Of a stretch of 41,941 nt of DNA, positions 6,528 to 38,914 are shown piece by piece. The stretch covers positions 1 to 41,941 of the IMG/VR virus record IMGVR_UViG_3300046453_000132; one strand, 5' to 3'. Every line of letters starts with the position of its first letter. Positions within the stretch are counted from its first letter, which is position 1. Made by a program: the position numbers and the translations under genes. The notes under the pieces are model-generated. The model was not told the origin of the DNA. It ran no database searches and saw nothing but the letters and a program-made list of their open reading frames with translations. The DNA is from a virus.

Positions 6528-9172
6528 ATGATCCGCTCCGCGCTGGCTGGTTGGGCAAAAACCCAGCACTTCACGCTGTGCCCGGTGGGCGAGTTGACGT
6601 TGTCGTACTTGAGGAACTTGCGGGAGTGAGAGTTGCGCAGCAGTTTGCGCAGGAAGTCGCCGTCCGGCGGCACGAGTCCGGCATGCCGGGCGCGCGCTTC
6701 AAACTCTGTCAGGCGGATCGCAATCTTCTGATCAGGCTTGCGGTGCTGGTTGAGCGACTTGCCGTTGGCATGGTCCTCCGGCCCCTCGCGATCGAGCAGA
6801 TGGTCGACCTGATCCCAGAACTTGGCGACCATGGGGTGGTCGCCGCCGCAGGCCATCTGCCTGTCCAGCGCCATCGCATCGACCTGCGCCAGTGTTTCGG
6901 CCAGCCATTCCGGCCGCATGCCTGGGAACATGTTGGGGAGCGCTTCCACGGCCGCTGAGAGCTGGCTGTGGTTGAGAATGACGCGGTCGTTTATGAGCCC
7001 GTCGACGCGCTTGCCCATCTCTTCAACATGATGGTCGAAACGCTCGAAGAAGAAGGGGAGGTATTTCGCCTCGTTACGAACGACATGGACGATCGTCCCG
7101 GAGACCCGATCAATCGGCCAGCGCTTGATCCTGGTAGCGGCCTCGCGGGCCGTGTCGGAAAAGCGGGACTTGTCGATGTCCATCGACATGAGACGCTCGA
7201 GCACAGCGGGGATCGCGTCGATCCGCTCATTCTGCATGAGATAGATCGAGCCGTGGAACGGCGGTTCCGACGTTTCGAAACCGCTGGTCTTGCGGGCGGT
7301 GCCGCGCGGGTTGCGACCGTTGAAGAGGATGAGCAGGTCGTTGTAATCGTACTGGCGCTGGCCAGTGCGCTTGTCGTCGCTGCGGTTGCCCTCGATCAGG
7401 CCGACCGGAAGGTTGGCGACCTTCATCATGATGCGGCCGAGGAAAGCGGCAGACCCCTTGTTCGGGTCGTAGCCTTCGTGGTTCGAGCGGCCGAGTATCT
7501 TCCAGAGGAACTCGATCAGGGTGGTCTTGCCCGAGCCCGGCAGTCCGGTAATTTCGAGGAATCCGAGCGAGCCGTCGCGGCTGCGGATCTGAACCGCGAA
7601 AAGCGACATGGTGAAGAACGCCAGCGCCACCATGCCCTTGGCGCCATAGGCAGTCCAAATGTCCGGCAACCAGTCGAGGTCGAGCTGGTCGGCGTCGTAC
7701 TGGATGGTGAGCATCCGCTCATCGCTGCAGAGCTTGACGGCCTGTTTGCCGAAATCGAAGTACTTCTCGCTGTTGACTTGGATCACGCGGCCGTCGCGCA
7801 CGCCCAGGTCCCCGAACAACCATGCGCGGTGATCCGGCGAGTAACCGGTAGCGAGGATGGGGGTGACCTTCTTGAGCTGGCGAAGCTGCCCGCGCTTGAT
7901 GCGATCGAGCTGTTCCTGCGTGCCGCTCCACATCCCGGTAAAGGCCAGCAGCCGGGTTCCGAATTCGCCGGACTTGGCGAGCGCATTGTTCGAAAACCGG
8001 GCCTTTACAGTCGGCTGACCTTCCGGAAAATCGACCTGCAGGAAGAAGTTCGTTTCATCGATAACGTCGTCGCGTTCGACGTAGAGGATCTTGAACGCGC
8101 AGTTGGAAATCTCATCGACTAGGAGATTGCGTTCGTCCTCATCGTTGTAGGTGACCTTGCACCACCACAGACGGTTGCCGTGCCGGAAGTCGAACGAGGC
8201 GAGCTTGCGCCGCTCGTAGAGCATCTGCGCTTTTTTGAAGGGCGTCTCTGCGATCGTGACCGCGCCGTTCCACAGGTAGGTTTCGAGCGCCTTTGCGCCC
8301 AGCGGAGCGCCCTCGGCATCCCCGCGCCAGTCCTGGTGGTCGATGAGAAGGTCGTTCCAGTCCTTTGATGTGCCCTCGCCGTCAGGGCGGACCTGCGCGG
8401 CCGTAGCGTCCCAGCCTTGCTCTTTGGCCTGCTTGACGAACCGCCGTGCCCATTTGACACCGGCGGCGCCGGGATCGAAGGCGAAGACCAGGCGGGGGCG
8501 GGTAGGCCGCTTGATGCGCTGCAGCTCGCCGCGCAGAAGATCGAGGAAATGCTCGGGCCAGTAGTTGCAGGACATCCCCGAAACGGCGAGCAGCTTGGCG
8601 CCCTGGTGCAGCGCGGCGGCATTGAAGATGCCTTCCGTGATCCAGATGTCTTCCGCCTTGGCGAGATCTTCGAGCGTGATCTTCGGTGGGGTCCAGCAAT
8701 GGCCGCCCGGCTTTCCCCCCTTGGCAAAGTGGGCCTTCTTTTCGAAGCGCCCCGGCTTGTCGATGATCCGCTCCCAATACGTCTCGCCCACCCGAAAGCG
8801 CACGGTGGCGCTTGTGTGGCGGGTCTTCGGGTCGCGGTAGAGTTCCTGCGTATAGGAACCACGGATCAGCTGCAGGTCGAGCCCGCGCTCATTCAGGAGG
8901 TAGGCATCCGCCGATGCATGGGGGTTCTCGTCGGTGACCGGGTGCCGCTTCGACCAGTCTTCGAACAGGTCGGGCAGGAGGTTGCGGACGGTGTCTTCCC
9001 ACCCGCATTTCTCTTGCCGGCCGCACCGAACGACCTTCGGCTCGTTTGCCGAGCAGAACAATTCGCGCTGGCCACACTGAGGGCACTTGCCCTCCTGCAT
9101 CCAGCTGCCTTGCGGTTTCTTAAACGCGAATTGGGCCGTGAGGCCCTTTATGATTTCGTCCTGCAGGTTCAC
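6524..9172 (-). CDS. Bifunctional DNA primase-helicase
   Basis: About 882 residues. The N-terminus has a zinc ribbon (CPQCGQ at about 30-35, then a second pair ending in CGW near 60) as in CHC2-type primases. Next comes a TOPRIM-like region at about 180-280 (WITEGIFNAAALHQGA, VFAFDPGAAGVKW). The C-terminal half has a Walker A loop GLPGSGKTT near residue 545 and downstream ATPase segments. The GTG start at 9172 overlaps the upstream stop (GTGA). Longer in-frame starts lie in the upstream gene and lack similarity. It should unwind and prime phage DNA at a theta-type origin. P2 instead uses a rolling-circle initiator (gpA), which I do not find here. Confidence 0.85.
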   Translation of the reverse strand: MNLQDEIIKGLTAQFAFKKPQGSWMQEGKCPQCGQRELFCSANEPKVVRCGRQEKCGWEDTVRNLLPDLFEDWSKRHPVTDENPHASADAYLLNERGLDLQLIRGSYTQELYRDPKTRHTSATVRFRVGETYWERIIDKPGRFEKKAHFAKGGKPGGHCWTPPKITLEDLAKAEDIWITEGIFNAAALHQGAKLLAVSGMSCNYWPEHFLDLLRGELQRIKRPTRPRLVFAFDPGAAGVKWARRFVKQAKEQGWDATAAQVRPDGEGTSKDWNDLLIDHQDWRGDAEGAPLGAKALETYLWNGAVTIAETPFKKAQMLYERRKLASFDFRHGNRLWWCKVTYNDEDERNLLVDEISNCAFKILYVERDDVIDETNFFLQVDFPEGQPTVKARFSNNALAKSGEFGTRLLAFTGMWSGTQEQLDRIKRGQLRQLKKVTPILATGYSPDHRAWLFGDLGVRDGRVIQVNSEKYFDFGKQAVKLCSDERMLTIQYDADQLDLDWLPDIWTAYGAKGMVALAFFTMSLFAVQIRSRDGSLGFLEITGLPGSGKTTLIEFLWKILGRSNHEGYDPNKGSAAFLGRIMMKVANLPVGLIEGNRSDDKRTGQRQYDYNDLLILFNGRNPRGTARKTSGFETSEPPFHGSIYLMQNERIDAIPAVLERLMSMDIDKSRFSDTAREAATRIKRWPIDRVSGTIVHVVRNEAKYLPFFFERFDHHVEEMGKRVDGLINDRVILNHSQLSAAVEALPNMFPGMRPEWLAETLAQVDAMALDRQMACGGDHPMVAKFWDQVDHLLDREGPEDHANGKSLNQHRKPDQKIAIRLTEFEARARHAGLVPPDGDFLRKLLRNSHSRKFLKYDNVNSPTGHSVKCWVFAQPASAERII

Positions 9173-9851: not shown

Positions 9852-10306
9852 TCTCGTCGATCCTCCGCTTCCTGCTGGTCCAGCGTGGCCAGACCGTCGG
9901 TCAGGCTTTCGATGGCTTCGTGAACTTCCTGCCGGGCACGGCGCCGGGCGCGCGGATCGCGCGAGCCGCTTGCGGTGATGAGCGCGGCGACTGCTTCCCC
10001 CGTTTCCTTGGCCGCTTTGCCAGCCAGGTCCGCCAGCGATTGGTCGCGTGCTTCGCGGATGGCCAGATCGATGCGCAGGCCATGGAGGCGATGGAACGGT
10101 GCATGATCGCCGCCGTACTCCATGAAGGCGCGATCGAGCCGCTCTGCGTCGATCAGGCGGATTTCGGTCTCACAGTCGGGATCGGACCAGTAACGCACCG
10201 CGCGCTCGGTGACGCCGCAGATGGCGGCGCAGCGATCCCATCCGATTCGCGCCGCGATTTCGGTGAGCGTGGCTTGATATGTAAGGGGTTCGCGGCGCTT
10301 CGTCAC
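9848..10306 (-). CDS. HTH regulator, second gene of the early operon
   Basis: The 152-residue protein has an N-terminal helix-turn-helix pattern (IAARIGWDRCAAICGVTERA then VRYWSDPDCE), reading like a phage CII-type or resolvase-like DNA reader. A helical basic tail follows (DPRARRRARQEVHEAIESL). The GTG start overlaps the Cro-like stop (GTGA) and its stop overlaps the Ogr start (ATGA). By position it could be a CII-like lysogeny switch or an early regulator. I cannot assign a named family with confidence. Confidence 0.65.
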   Translation of the reverse strand: MTKRREPLTYQATLTEIAARIGWDRCAAICGVTERAVRYWSDPDCETEIRLIDAERLDRAFMEYGGDHAPFHRLHGLRIDLAIREARDQSLADLAGKAAKETGEAVAALITASGSRDPRARRRARQEVHEAIESLTDGLATLDQQEAEDRRE

Positions 10307-10647
10307 AATGAGGCGCCCTTCATTCCCGTTGCACTATTGCAAGAGACGCGGCGTGAGCGGGCATCTACCCCGGCGCTGCGGACACCGGCGCGATGATCGA
10401 CGCCGGACCAGCGAGAGGGCGCCTCGGGCATATCGACAGGGTAAATATCGGGGCGAAGAATATGACGAGAAACGCCGGTGGCCGCTTCAATGGCCAACAC
10501 ATGCTCGGCGGGAACCCGCTTAGAGCTTTGAATCCATTTCCAGACGGCGGGCTGCCCGACACCGCAAATCCTAGCGAGCGCTGACTGCGACCCGGCCGCT
10601 TCGACGGCTGCGAGAAGGGCTTCGTATGGTGATGGGGTGTCGAGCAT
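10303..10647 (-). CDS. YdaS/Cro-type antirepressor-side regulator
   Basis: About 114 residues from ATG 10647. The N-terminal 65 residues match the YdaS/Cro HTH family: AAGSQSALARICGVGQPAVW, then KWIQSSKRVPAEHVLAIEAA and TGVSRHILRPDIYP. It is divergent from the CI-like gene across an AT-rich operator and is the first gene of the early operon, the classic place of Cro. It probably represses the CI promoter after induction. The C-terminal 45 residues are low-complexity and basic. I see no good ribosome site, so the mRNA may be leaderless. Confidence 0.8.
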   Translation of the reverse strand: MLDTPSPYEALLAAVEAAGSQSALARICGVGQPAVWKWIQSSKRVPAEHVLAIEAATGVSRHILRPDIYPVDMPEAPSRWSGVDHRAGVRSAGVDARSRRVSCNSATGMKGASL

Positions 10648-10655
10648 GTACGCAA

Positions 10656-10721
10656 CTATAGATACATCTATTCCTTTGGCAATAGACAAATCTAACTACC
10701 ATCCTATTCCTTTAGTTATAG
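10656..10721. promoter_or_regulatory. Divergent switch region with operator-like dyads
   Basis: This is an AT-rich stretch between the Cro-like and CI-like genes. An 18-bp element CTATTCCTTTNNNNATAG appears twice, at 10668-10685 and 10704-10721, 36 bp apart, each with CTAT/ATAG arms. Two further dyads overlap: ATAGAT-AC-ATCTAT (10658-10671) and TAGA-CAAA-TCTA (10683-10694). These are the likely CI/Cro operators. Individual -35/-10 boxes are ambiguous and I do not assign them. Confidence 0.6.
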
Positions 10722-10732
10722 GGTCCAGCCCG

Positions 10733-11395
10733 ATGACAATGGGTGATAGGATCCGAGATCGGCTTGAGGCCCTGGGCATGTCCCAGGCCGAACTTGCGCG
10801 CCGCGTCGGCATATCGCAGCCCAGCGTGAACCATCTGGTCAAACGCGGCGCAACGGGGTCTTCTCACCTGCACAAGATCGCGCGGGAGTTGGAAACTACA
10901 CCGGCATATCTGACGGGCGAGATCGATGATCCCTCAACAGGCGCTTTGCCTGCGCCGACGGCGGCAATGATCGCTGAGCAGCTGGGCCTTACGTTAATCC
11001 CGGAAATCGACCTTCACTTTGCTCTGGGTGGGGGGAGCTTCGTCGATGGTTACGTGACAGAAACGCTCGTGCCCTACCGCACGGATTGGCTGCACCGCAT
11101 TACCCGTGGTCTGCCCGACGATATTTTTCTGACGCAAGGTGATGGCGATTCCATGCTGCCCACGATCCTTGATGGCGACGATGTCATCGTGAATCGCGCA
11201 GAGCGGATGATAACCAAACAGGATAAGATCTGGGCCTTGGGTTATGGCGACTTGGTCGCAATCAAACGCGTACGTAAGATGGCGGATGGGACGTTTCGCC
11301 TATTGAGTGACAATAAGGAAATCCCACCGATCGAGGCCCTTGAAGATGAGCTTAGAATCATCGGGCGGGTGATCTGGATTGGCCGAAGGATGTAG
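10733..11395 (+). CDS. CI-like repressor: HTH_3 plus S24 peptidase-like domain
   Basis: The 220-residue protein has an N-terminal Cro/CI helix-turn-helix (LGMSQAELARRVGISQPSVN at about 14-33) and a C-terminal LexA/CI domain. GDSMLPTI carries the nucleophile Ser140 and VAIKRV the general base Lys178. It should keep the early operon off and may sense DNA damage through RecA. I find no Ala-Gly or Cys-Gly pair in the linker (about residues 62-115), the usual cleavage site, so self-cleavage is uncertain. ATG 10733 or ATG 10739 may be the start. Confidence 0.9.
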   Translation: MTMGDRIRDRLEALGMSQAELARRVGISQPSVNHLVKRGATGSSHLHKIARELETTPAYLTGEIDDPSTGALPAPTAAMIAEQLGLTLIPEIDLHFALGGGSFVDGYVTETLVPYRTDWLHRITRGLPDDIFLTQGDGDSMLPTILDGDDVIVNRAERMITKQDKIWALGYGDLVAIKRVRKMADGTFRLLSDNKEIPPIEALEDELRIIGRVIWIGRRM

Positions 11396-11413
11396 GTTTT
11401 GGCGTTGCCCCCC

Positions 11414-11809
11414 ATGTCGTTCGCCGTTGTCGGCGGCACTCACAAAAATACCGATGGCACGAGCCGCATGGACGAAATTTTCCGATGCGATCCCGGGGAG
11501 CTGGTCGATCTTGTGCCCGAGCCGGAGAACAAGTTCGATAGGCACGCTATCGCCGTCTTTTCCAGCCGCGCCGTCCAGATCGGCTACATCAGCGCTGAGC
11601 GTGCGCCGCGCCTGGGTAGTCTTCTTGGAAGCACCGAGGTCCATGCGGTCTTTCAACGGCCGACGTCGTTCGGCGCATGGATACGGCTCGCATTCGACGG
11701 GGAGGTGCCGGTGCTGTCCGAGGCGATGCTCGAGGAACACGAGCCGATTGACCAACCACGTCACAATGAGCCCGATTTCTATCCTGATGAGGTGTGGCCG
11801 GACGATTGA
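11414..11809 (+). CDS. HIRAN domain protein
   Basis: A 131-residue protein matching the HIRAN family: SFAVVGGTHKN, a D.IF..DPGELVDLVPEPEN block, FDRHAIAV, then QIGYIS. HIRAN domains bind DNA 3' ends or damaged DNA in HLTF and Rad5 and also occur alone in bacteria and phages. It starts 18 nt after the repressor stop, so it is probably expressed in the lysogen as cargo. The C-terminal 30 residues are acidic. Role in the phage unknown. Confidence 0.8.
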   Translation: MSFAVVGGTHKNTDGTSRMDEIFRCDPGELVDLVPEPENKFDRHAIAVFSSRAVQIGYISAERAPRLGSLLGSTEVHAVFQRPTSFGAWIRLAFDGEVPVLSEAMLEEHEPIDQPRHNEPDFYPDEVWPDD

Positions 11810-11841
11810 CGATAACCATCGGGCCGGGGGCGGCTCGATGC

Positions 11842-12489
11842 ATGAACAGGGGAAGTTCATTGCCGAAGAAGCCTAAGTCAAACGAAGTTGCCTGCCCGCG
11901 TTGCAAGGAGCCGATCGCGCTTGGGGCCGAAGTCTGCCCTCACTGTCGCACGGAGTTCTCGCCGGAGGAGGTAGCGACGCGTAAGAAACAGCACCGGCAG
12001 AATTGGCTCGGCGGCTGCGCAGTGCTGATCGCACTGGCCGCGATCGTCAGCTACTGTTCGGGCCGCTCCGATGACACTGCTCAGCATGATGTTCCCAAAC
12101 CTGCAGCAACCGTGCAGTCGGCGTCAGATGATGCACCTGTGCCGGGACAGGTCGACGCTGAGGAGCCTGTTAACACCCTCACCGGCCCGCAGGCCAATGC
12201 CGCAAGGTCGGCCCAGCAATACCTCGACATGTCGGGGTTTTCGCGATTGGGTCTCATAGACCAGCTGTCGTCTGAAGCTGGCAACGGTTACGAGAAGGCC
12301 GACGCGACTGCAGCGGTGGATAGCCTTAACGTCGATTGGAACGAGCAGGCAGCTCGATCGGCAAAGCAGTACCTCGATATGTCCGGCTTCTCCTGCAAGG
12401 GCCTTATCGAGCAGTTGTCATCCGACGCGGGGAACCAGTACACGAAAGCACAGGCGGCTTACGGCGCACAGCAGGCGGGTGCTTGCTGA
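11842..12489 (+). CDS. Zinc-ribbon/TM protein with two Ltp repeats, candidate superinfection exclusion
   Basis: About 215 residues. The N-terminus is a zinc ribbon (CPRCKEPI ... CPHCRTEF). A transmembrane helix follows (GGCAVLIALAAIVSYCSG), then a polar linker. The end holds two tandem repeats of about 47 residues: ARSAQQYLDMSGFSRLGLID with QLSSEAGNGY, and ARSAKQYLDMSGFSCKGLIE with QLSSDAGNQY. The repeats match the Ltp family. Streptococcal phage TP-J34 Ltp is a lipoprotein whose repeats block DNA injection by superinfecting phages. Here a membrane helix replaces the lipid anchor. The start is uncertain: ATG 11842, or TTG 11860 after AGGGGAAG. Confidence 0.75.
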   Translation: MNRGSSLPKKPKSNEVACPRCKEPIALGAEVCPHCRTEFSPEEVATRKKQHRQNWLGGCAVLIALAAIVSYCSGRSDDTAQHDVPKPAATVQSASDDAPVPGQVDAEEPVNTLTGPQANAARSAQQYLDMSGFSRLGLIDQLSSEAGNGYEKADATAAVDSLNVDWNEQAARSAKQYLDMSGFSCKGLIEQLSSDAGNQYTKAQAAYGAQQAGAC

Positions 12490-12541
12490 GCGCATCATAG
12501 GCCCGTGTCGTATCGCGATGACCTGATAAGTTGGAGAATTT

Positions 12542-13354
12542 ATGAACGTAGCCCGGGAGATACATTTTGCATTATTAAAGTTGATGGAGGGCGAAGAGCT
12601 TCACAGCATAGCTAGTTCTTGGTGTAAATTGTTTTCAGTAGAGCAAGAGTCTACGGAATATTATCTGATGCTCTCGGCAATGATGGCAAAATTTGATAGC
12701 CTTCAAAAGCAAATTAATATTTCGTGCGTTGATGATGTGGAGCGTCGCCTATATTGCGGAGCGGCTGATCGTCTATTGCCATTTGTCAGGCCAAGTAGCG
12801 CTAATGGCCTTCAAGTAATGTCACTTCGAGGCGCTCAATCTGATATTGATCTAATTTACTTGAGCGGAAGAGTACTAGAGGAATACTTAATTCCCGAAAT
12901 AAGTAAGGTTACGATAGATGCCCTTATAGACGAAATAAATGGGCTATTAGCTTCGGTACACGCGTGTGAACCGCCGCTGAGCGCGCGGCTTAGGGAACTG
13001 ATGGAGTCCAGCCTTCGCTCTGCGTTGTTCGCATTGCAGTCTTATGACGTTCTGGGCTTGGACGGCTTTAATCGCGTTTTCGGAACCGTTATTTTCGGGG
13101 TCATGCGCGCAAGCGAGACTGCAGGCAAGCAATCACCCGGTCAGTTGACACTGCTCAAGAAGTTCATGCAGACGTTTAAGAAAATTGGCGTCGTTATCGC
13201 GCTCGCACATGCAGCAGTCGGCGGGGCGGCCGAGATGATAGAAAGTGGTGGTAAAATAGTCGATTTTCTAACCGGCCCGCAGGAAGAAGGAGATCCTAAT
13301 TTTTCTAACGGAGATGGCGGGATTTCGAAATCTGAAGGTAACGATATAGTTTGA
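12542..13354 (+). CDS. AT-rich cargo gene of unknown function, 270 aa
   Basis: The ATG at 12542 follows GGAGAATTT. Base and codon use are clearly more AT-rich than in neighbouring genes (AAT, ATA, TTA codons), a sign of separate acquisition. The product is helical. Near the C-terminus lies a hydrophobic or amphipathic stretch after a Lys-rich helix (KKIGVVIALAHAAVGGAAEM, about residues 216-235), which may touch membranes. The tail is Gly/Asn/acidic. I recognise no family. It is in line with the repressor genes and ends just before convergent D, a typical place for lysogenic-conversion or defence genes. Confidence 0.75.
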   Translation: MNVAREIHFALLKLMEGEELHSIASSWCKLFSVEQESTEYYLMLSAMMAKFDSLQKQINISCVDDVERRLYCGAADRLLPFVRPSSANGLQVMSLRGAQSDIDLIYLSGRVLEEYLIPEISKVTIDALIDEINGLLASVHACEPPLSARLRELMESSLRSALFALQSYDVLGLDGFNRVFGTVIFGVMRASETAGKQSPGQLTLLKKFMQTFKKIGVVIALAHAAVGGAAEMIESGGKIVDFLTGPQEEGDPNFSNGDGGISKSEGNDIV

Positions 13355-13382
13355 AAGAAACTTTTCATATTTCCGAAGTAGA

Positions 13383-37633: not shown

Positions 37634-38914
37634 TCATCCGGCATTTCGGGTTGATATGATCCCGGCCGGCCGAGGATATGGGTCGGCCGGCGGGGGCTCG
37701 CTGAGGTCGATGCTGTAGAAGGTGTAGGCCTCCTCAGGCACGAGCGTGCCGTGCCGAAGGAGCGCCTTCGCCCGGAGCGACACGAAGTCCAACCCGTTGG
37801 CCTCGCGGTTGATGTCAGCGATGGACCGGTTCATCCGCTCGACCTTCCCGCTGGTGAAGCGGTGCTCGAAGTAGGCGAATATCTCGTCCCGGTTCATCTG
37901 CACCATCTTCATGAGCGGTTTCCACTCCGAGTGCTGGTCATACTCGCGGACGGTGTCGATCCAGTTGCGGTAGGTCTGCTCAGCCTCTGCCCGGCTCTGC
38001 TTCTCGTAGAAGAACTGGAAGCTTTCCTTGATCGTGTAGGCCGCCTGCATCGCCGGGCTCTGCCCGAGAATTTCGGCCACCGTGTCCTGCGACGAGAGCT
38101 TCAGCGTGTCCCACCGCTTGTCGAACATCCGGATAATTCCGGGCATCTTCTTGCGCAGTTCGGGCGGCAGCGATGGCGTCTCCCGGTAGCGTATCTTGTT
38201 CCAGATGACGCCAGCGCGCATGAGCACGTGGAACTTGTCGACGACGACCTGCGCCTTCGGGAAGAGATCGCGGGCTACGCCCTTGTAGGCGTGGGCCATG
38301 TCCTGACACCAGACCTCGACGTTCTCCCACTGGTCCATGTGGGTCATCATGCCCTTGCGGACGTGAGAGCCAGTGCAGCCCTCATACATGTCGAGCAGAC
38401 GCCCGCTCTCCACGTCCAGAACGACGCCGCGTGCCTTGCCGAACAAGTGGTTCTCGTCGATGCCGAGCACGCGCGGGGCATTGAACCTGTAGTCCAGCAG
38501 CTTCTCGTCCGCATACCGTCTGAACACGCGCCGGGCGAGGCTCTCCTCGACGGCATGGAAGGCCACGGCATCCCGGAACGACCGGTTGCAGGTTGAGAGC
38601 CTGAGATCATCGCGCAGACGCTCGGTGATGTAGTGGTGATCATCCACGCCCGGCACGGGTTGGTAGAGGGTCGCCTTGCAGGCTTTGCACTTCCCTCGCT
38701 GTCGCCTGACTGACAGCCACGTAGGGGCGGGTTCGAGCCGCCGGTCGCGATAGCGAACCACTTTGCTGCCGTTCCTCACCAGCAGCGGCTCCGGGCAGCA
38801 AGCCGGGAGGTCCGTCGCAAGCTCGCAGGGAATATCCACCTCGACCAGCCTGCCATCCTCATGGATCAGGTTGATGTCCCCCGGAACGATGCCGGGGATG
38901 CGCAACCAGTTCAC
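37634..38914 (-). CDS. ISL3-family transposase
   Basis: The 426-residue protein has the ISL3 layout. The N-terminal zinc knuckles are ACCP ... KCKACKATLYQP, followed by an HTH part. The DDE core opens with VLGIDENHLFGKARGVVLDV (first Asp), continues with WCQDMAHAYKGVARDLFPKA and VVVDKFHVL (second Asp), and ends with the Glu region (TSGKVERMNRSIADI). The GTG start overlaps the stop of the ribbon-helix-helix gene (GTGA), so the two form an operon. I could not find matching terminal inverted repeats or a target duplication, so it may be truncated or captured cargo. It interrupts the space where P2 has cos. Confidence 0.85.
   Translation of the reverse strand: MNWLRIPGIVPGDINLIHEDGRLVEVDIPCELATDLPACCPEPLLVRNGSKVVRYRDRRLEPAPTWLSVRRQRGKCKACKATLYQPVPGVDDHHYITERLRDDLRLSTCNRSFRDAVAFHAVEESLARRVFRRYADEKLLDYRFNAPRVLGIDENHLFGKARGVVLDVESGRLLDMYEGCTGSHVRKGMMTHMDQWENVEVWCQDMAHAYKGVARDLFPKAQVVVDKFHVLMRAGVIWNKIRYRETPSLPPELRKKMPGIIRMFDKRWDTLKLSSQDTVAEILGQSPAMQAAYTIKESFQFFYEKQSRAEAEQTYRNWIDTVREYDQHSEWKPLMKMVQMNRDEIFAYFEHRFTSGKVERMNRSIADINREANGLDFVSLRAKALLRHGTLVPEEAYTFYSIDLSEPPPADPYPRPAGIISTRNAG

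What the first reader, a model, noticed from the sequence alone, without database searches (positions are those of the whole stretch)
11842..12489. Membrane-anchored, zinc-ribbon form of the Ltp superinfection-exclusion protein
Two clear Ltp repeats sit behind a zinc ribbon and a transmembrane helix instead of a lipoprotein signal. Ltp was characterised in a Gram-positive phage, where the repeats stop DNA entry. A Gram-negative version placed on the inner membrane, expressed from the prophage, would be a new architecture for exclusion.
Basis: partly seen in the sequence, partly recalled or inferred. Interest (0 to 1): 0.65.

Follow-up and report, generated by a model that had tools for sequence, protein, structure and literature searches.

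The report
Prophage membrane protein blocking rival phages
A virus living inside a sphingomonad-type bacterium carries, right behind its own repressor gene, an inner-membrane protein whose outer half has the shape of a known phage-blocking protein (Ltp); the membrane anchor and the outer half turn out to be exchangeable parts that related viruses mix and match.

Summary
Window 11842-12489 (+; start probably TTG 11860) encodes a C4 zinc ribbon, one TM helix, a disordered linker and two Ltp repeats (PF07553, 95 bits; AlphaFold model matches crystal Ltp 4eqq, TM 0.87-0.89). No lipobox is usable. Ltp-repeat proteins of Gram-negative phages, mostly TM-anchored, are already known and annotated 'superinfection exclusion' (Psymv2, AbIPP1), so that part is not new; the zinc-ribbon anchor is a rarer recurrent variant with a full-length orthologue (62%). 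What is new here: the gene lies in a cargo slot between the lysogeny repressor (plus HIRAN gene) and tail gene gpD, mirroring ltp in the TP-J34 lysogeny module. Across more than 20 related phages and prophages this slot holds mostly envelope proteins, and anchor and periplasmic domain recombine: a sister phage has 99%-identical repeats on another anchor, with homology starting at the repeat boundary, while other phages carry the same zinc-ribbon anchor fused to unrelated cysteine-paired domains. An all-or-nothing cysteine pair in repeat 2 (42:0:0:29) and dN/dS about 0.02 support a conserved periplasmic domain. Most likely function: prophage-expressed exclusion at DNA entry. Exclusion itself was not shown.

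The parts
10637..11395 (+). CI-like repressor (HTH_3 + Peptidase_S24), first gene of the lysogeny cassette
   Evidence: phrog_4 8e-46; 82% identical over residues 8-249 to the repressor of L160, 71% to L159
11399..11809 (+). HIRAN-domain protein, 3 nt after the repressor stop
   Evidence: PF08797 9e-9; same place in L036, L037, L157, L159, L160, L193
11842..12489 (+). Zinc ribbon-TM-Ltp protein, 215 aa; probable true start TTG 11860 with AGGGGA upstream
   Evidence: full-length orthologue L153
11893..11946 (+). C4 zinc ribbon, Cys18/21/32/35, predicted cytoplasmic
12007..12060 (+). Transmembrane helix, predicted N-in/C-out
12061..12177 (+). Disordered periplasmic linker; homology with sister phage L037 begins at its 3' end (about 12177)
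12190..12327 (+). Ltp repeat 1
   Evidence: PF07553, 48.5 bits; fold = 4eqq
12334..12468 (+). Ltp repeat 2
   Evidence: PF07553, 57.4 bits; fold = 4eqq
12394..12486 (+). Span of the coupled cysteines Cys185 and Cys215 (putative disulfide)
   Evidence: both present in 42, both absent in 29, never one alone
11396..13382 (+). Cargo slot between the repressor and the tail gene gpD; content varies between related phages
12542..13354 (+). ORF of 270 aa, AT-rich insert, second cargo gene, no known family
   Evidence: absent from L037

Best explanation
The gene encodes a prophage-expressed superinfection-exclusion protein of the Ltp type. It is made from the lysogeny cassette together with the repressor. 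A TM helix holds it in the inner membrane with the zinc ribbon in the cytoplasm, and a flexible linker lets two Ltp repeats, the second probably closed by a disulfide, project into the periplasm. There they would meet the tape measure protein or conduit that an incoming long-tailed phage pushes through the periplasm and stall DNA entry. Shown here: domain content, Ltp fold (model), conserved repressor-linked position, purifying selection, coupled cysteines, anchor exchange. Inferred: topology, expression in the lysogen, exclusion, the tape-measure target. The zinc ribbon is best read as part of an exchangeable cytoplasmic anchor module, not as part of the exclusion activity.
For: PF07553 95 bits and two PHROG 'superinfection exclusion' families, 4e-42 and 4.9e-37. 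Profile vs 4eqq 2.4e-14; Foldseek 4eqq E 4.7e-5, TM 0.87-0.89, rmsd 1.2. Repressor-HIRAN-Ltp order here; an S24 repressor lies directly upstream on the same strand in 16 of 34 related viral records. [quoted passage not shown]). Cys185/Cys215 coupling 42:0:0:29. dN 0.0085 vs dS 0.44 in the repeats. Relatives carry lipoboxes or secretion signals in place of the TM helix, which places the repeats outside the cytoplasm in all of them.
Against: No experiment on this protein or, in the papers searched, on any Gram-negative Ltp. PADLOC has no match. Known Ltp targets are phages of Gram-positive bacteria; this carrier has P2-like tail genes (gpD, gpU). Negative surface charge, invoked for tape-measure binding, is mild here (repeats net -4) and not conserved: some relatives are 0 to +3. 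Cysteine counts are not phylogenetically independent.
Confidence: 0.62

Rival explanations
1. A lysogenic-conversion envelope protein whose benefit is not phage exclusion, for example envelope stress tolerance, interference with conjugation or another host-fitness trait; the Ltp fold serves as a general periplasmic binding module.
For: The same slot holds a GDSL lipase-like protein, a DUF2939 protein, small secreted proteins, a trypsin-like protein and a lipoprotein in related phages; Ltp-repeat proteins also occur on plasmids and in a chromosome away from recognisable phage genes; most have no tested role.
Against: The one studied function of the fold is exclusion; placement with the repressor copies TP-J34; strong constraint on the repeats while anchors vary.
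Confidence: 0.25
2. A membrane sensor: the periplasmic repeats bind an incoming tail protein and the cytoplasmic zinc ribbon passes the signal on, perhaps to the HIRAN protein or the repressor.
For: Zinc ribbon-TM-periplasmic domain layout; weak resemblance to TcaA (E 0.087, far below cut-off); HIRAN gene in the same cassette.
Against: The related phages L036 and L037 keep HIRAN and Ltp but lack the ribbon; L153 keeps ribbon and Ltp but lacks HIRAN; so neither depends on the other.
Confidence: 0.08
3. The repeats face the cytoplasm and act there, for example on DNA as helix-turn-helix units.
For: The repeats are called HTH-like in the Ltp literature (PMC11480721).
Against: Positive-inside charge, coupled cysteines, and relatives with signal peptides or lipoboxes.
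Confidence: 0.03

Closest known systems
Ltp of Streptococcus thermophilus phage TP-J34 (PDB 4eqq; PMC3952083)
   Same: Two-repeat fold (TM 0.87-0.89), spacer before the repeats, gene in the lysogeny module near the CI repressor
   Different: Lipid anchor in TP-J34; TM helix plus zinc ribbon here; repeats 28% identical over the fold alignment; coupled cysteines here
Annotated 'superinfection exclusion' proteins of Psychrobacter phage Psymv2 and Acinetobacter phage AbIPP1
   Same: Gram-negative hosts, TM anchor, two repeats with the coupled cysteines
   Different: No zinc ribbon; gene sits between head-tail and tail genes, not next to the repressor
L153 (IMGVR_UViG_2643221738_000001)
   Same: 62% identical over the full length, ribbon included, directly after the repressor
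   Different: No HIRAN gene in between, no ORF270
HK97 gp15 and P22 SieA (inner-membrane exclusion proteins; PMC10883804)
   Same: Inner-membrane, prophage-encoded, block DNA entry; [quoted passage not shown]
   Different: Cited as functional analogues; no sequence or fold comparison with them was made here

Membership tests
Ltp-repeat family (PF07553) | Ltp repeats above the curated cut-off | tested here: met
   95.2 vs 23.2 bits, two repeats
Ltp-repeat family (PF07553) | Fold of 4eqq | tested here: met
   Predicted model; Foldseek TM 0.87-0.89, rmsd 1.2
Ltp superinfection-exclusion lipoproteins | Lipoprotein signal with lipobox | tested here: not met
   Only LGGC, placed before the hydrophobic stretch; TM helix instead. 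It is therefore an Ltp-repeat protein but not a lipoprotein
Ltp superinfection-exclusion lipoproteins | Repeats on the outer face of the cytoplasmic membrane | tested here: inconclusive
   Supported by charge bias, coupled cysteines, and exported relatives; not shown
Ltp superinfection-exclusion lipoproteins | Gene in the lysogeny module | tested here: met
   Repressor 10637-11395, HIRAN, Ltp on one strand; 16 of 34 relatives likewise
Ltp superinfection-exclusion lipoproteins | Transcribed in the prophage state | not testable with these tools
   Position only
Ltp superinfection-exclusion lipoproteins | Blocks DNA injection of superinfecting phage | not testable with these tools
   Needs plating and DNA-entry assays
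Ltp superinfection-exclusion lipoproteins | Negatively charged face that binds the tape measure protein | tested here: inconclusive
   Net charge of repeats -4; relatives from -12 to +3; surface not mapped

The most novel reading that the evidence does not exclude
The repressor-to-gpD slot of these sphingomonad-type phages is a modular exclusion locus: a zinc ribbon-TM scaffold displays interchangeable periplasmic blockers, of which Ltp is one. The four-cysteine helical bundle (payload B in L157, L158, L159, L160, L172, L193, L194) and the payload C domain (L171, L173) would then be new, undescribed families of exclusion protein, swapped against each other to keep up with resistance in incoming phages.
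Probability: 0.35. Interest if true: 0.72.

Novelty: new variant of a known kind. Interest (0 to 1): 0.5.

Why it matters
Ltp has been studied in Gram-positive phages only, as far as the searched papers show. A Gram-negative form in a defined prophage slot makes tape-measure-directed exclusion testable across a periplasm. The slot gives ready comparison sets: same repeats on different anchors, and same anchor with different outer domains, so anchor and activity can be separated. It also points to two unstudied domain families by position.

Tried and rejected
Lipoprotein reading: LGGC at 56-59 lies before the hydrophobic stretch, so rejected. Zinc ribbon as required partner of the repeats: rejected, since the sister phage keeps the repeats without it. 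Dependence on HIRAN: rejected, L153 lacks it. Payload B as a divergent Ltp: no Pfam family, no PDB sequence match, no significant fold match (best E 0.075, a designed helical bundle; no Ltp among the listed hits). PADLOC and NCBIfam gave nothing useful for the Ltp protein. ORF270: no viral relative found. A paper looked up under a guessed DOI was the wrong one and was not used. Searches for papers on a zinc ribbon with exclusion, and for the Pfam accession, found none. Surface charge and Cys-Cys distance could not be measured because model coordinates are not exposed.

Full report
Observation. The 215-residue reading frame at 11842-12489 (+) is real and has the parts claimed. Two Ltp repeats score 95.2 bits against a cut-off of 23.2 and are found one by one at 12190-12327 and 12334-12468. 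Ahead of them are a C4 zinc ribbon (Cys18, 21, 32, 35), a basic stretch, one hydrophobic helix and a linker. AlphaFold2 on an alignment of 37 relatives gives the ribbon pLDDT 85-94, a helix 41-71, a disordered stretch 73-113 and repeats at about 97. Foldseek against the PDB returns TP-J34 Ltp, 4eqq, as the only significant match (E 4.7e-5, TM 0.87-0.89 by target, rmsd 1.2), and a profile of the family matches 4eqq by sequence at 2.4e-14. The start is more likely TTG 11860 than ATG 11842: a good Shine-Dalgarno AGGGGA precedes it, and the ATG starts of the related L157 and L159 fall there.

Place in the genome. The window is a virus record of 41941 bases. The Ltp gene follows a CI/S24 repressor and a HIRAN gene on one strand, and the P2-like tail genes (gpD, gpU, a minor-tail/tape-measure-type protein) run towards it from the other side. 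[quoted passage not shown]). In 16 of 34 viral records with related proteins an S24 repressor lies directly upstream on the same strand (two pairs of these are near duplicates).

Is it new that it is Gram-negative and TM-anchored? No. Relatives sit in Psychrobacter phage Psymv2 and Acinetobacter phage AbIPP1, both annotated as superinfection exclusion, both TM-anchored, on plasmids of Serratia, Pantoea, Acinetobacter and others, and in dozens of IMG/VR contigs. Anchors differ: a TM helix, a two-helix anchor, a SHOCT-like N-terminus plus TM (L061, read from the sequence), a lipobox (L064, L083, L095) or a plain secretion signal (L010, L072, L090). All put the repeats outside the cytoplasm. The zinc-ribbon form is a minority: this window, L153, Sphingomonas mali (L003), another Sphingomonadales genome (L055/L169), a Planctomycetota bin (L007) and a Picosynechococcus plasmid (L051). 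Ltp repeats themselves are rare in sampled genomes: 4 of 298 Sphingomonadales and 5 of 398 of the phylum.

Signs of function. In 71 distinct relatives a cysteine in repeat 2 and a cysteine at the C-terminus are both present (42) or both absent (29), never one alone. This is what a disulfide would give and fits an oxidising periplasm, though the sequences are not independent. Between the window and sister phage L037 the repeats differ by 24 synonymous and 2 nonsynonymous changes, dN 0.0085 against dS 0.44.

Exchange of parts. L037 has late genes about 95% identical in DNA to the window, yet its repressor is 37% and its HIRAN 44% identical, and its Ltp gene has no zinc ribbon. DNA homology starts abruptly at about 12177, just before the first codon of the repeat region, and ends at about 12498. 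So the repeats are shared and the anchor is not. The converse also exists. Searching from gpD and from the anchor showed the same zinc ribbon-TM anchor in the same slot fused to other domains: payload B, a helical domain with four invariant cysteines, in L157, L158, L159, L160, L193 and prophage L172; payload C in prophages L171 and L173. L194 also has payload B behind a ribbon, but its context differs. The window's repressor is 82% identical to that of L160 and 71% to L159, both of which carry payload B. Payload B also occurs on other anchors (L180, L181). It is modelled as a helical bundle (pLDDT 87) without significant PDB match and without a Pfam family. The direction of the exchanges cannot be told from these data.

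What else the slot holds. Other related phages have a DUF2939 TM protein (L148), a TM-anchored GDSL lipase-like protein (L149), small secreted proteins (L144, L145), a DUF4429-SHOCT protein with a lipoprotein (L154), a trypsin-like protein (L172), a short coiled-coil-like protein (L142) or a Bro-N protein after Ltp (L036). Most are envelope proteins. This fits a locus for changing the cell envelope of the lysogen against other phages, but also fits other lysogenic-conversion traits.

Mechanism and confidence. I hold family membership and fold as shown, inner-membrane anchoring with periplasmic repeats as likely (about 0.85), exclusion as probable (about 0.65), and the tape measure as target as plausible by analogy (about 0.5). 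The zinc ribbon is best taken as part of the anchor. The finding is a new variant of a known kind; the modular slot is the more interesting result and needs an exclusion assay.

Noticed in passing
L157, L158, L159, L160, L172, L193, L194: The same zinc ribbon-TM anchor carries an unrelated helical domain with four invariant cysteines (payload B); in all but L194 it lies in the repressor-to-gpD slot. No Pfam family and no significant PDB fold match.
   Followed up: partly
L171:7125-7823; L173 (anchor part about 6970-7116): The same anchor fused to another cysteine-containing domain (payload C, shared stretch DWP[KR]AWRGDYQGQRN; phrog_5882 match in L171) in two prophages at the same slot.
   Followed up: partly
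window 12542-13354: 270-aa ORF downstream of Ltp, GC 43-53% against about 60% around it, absent from sister phage L037, no family and no viral relative found.
   Followed up: partly
window 11399-11809: HIRAN-domain gene between repressor and Ltp; conserved in several related phages and weakly similar to PADLOC candidate PDC-M03B. Role unknown.
   Followed up: partly
window 10303-10689 (-): YdaS-family protein divergent from the repressor, probably the Cro-like partner (PF15943 4e-20).
   Followed up: no
L003:5462-5920 and L154:7115-7579: DUF4429-SHOCT proteins next to Ltp (Sphingomonas mali) and next to a lipoprotein in the slot of L154; a possible recurring partner.
   Followed up: no
window 37634-38914 (-): Large ORF that reads like an IS transposase (ISL3-type by eye), next to the portal-like gene; not tested.
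   Followed up: no
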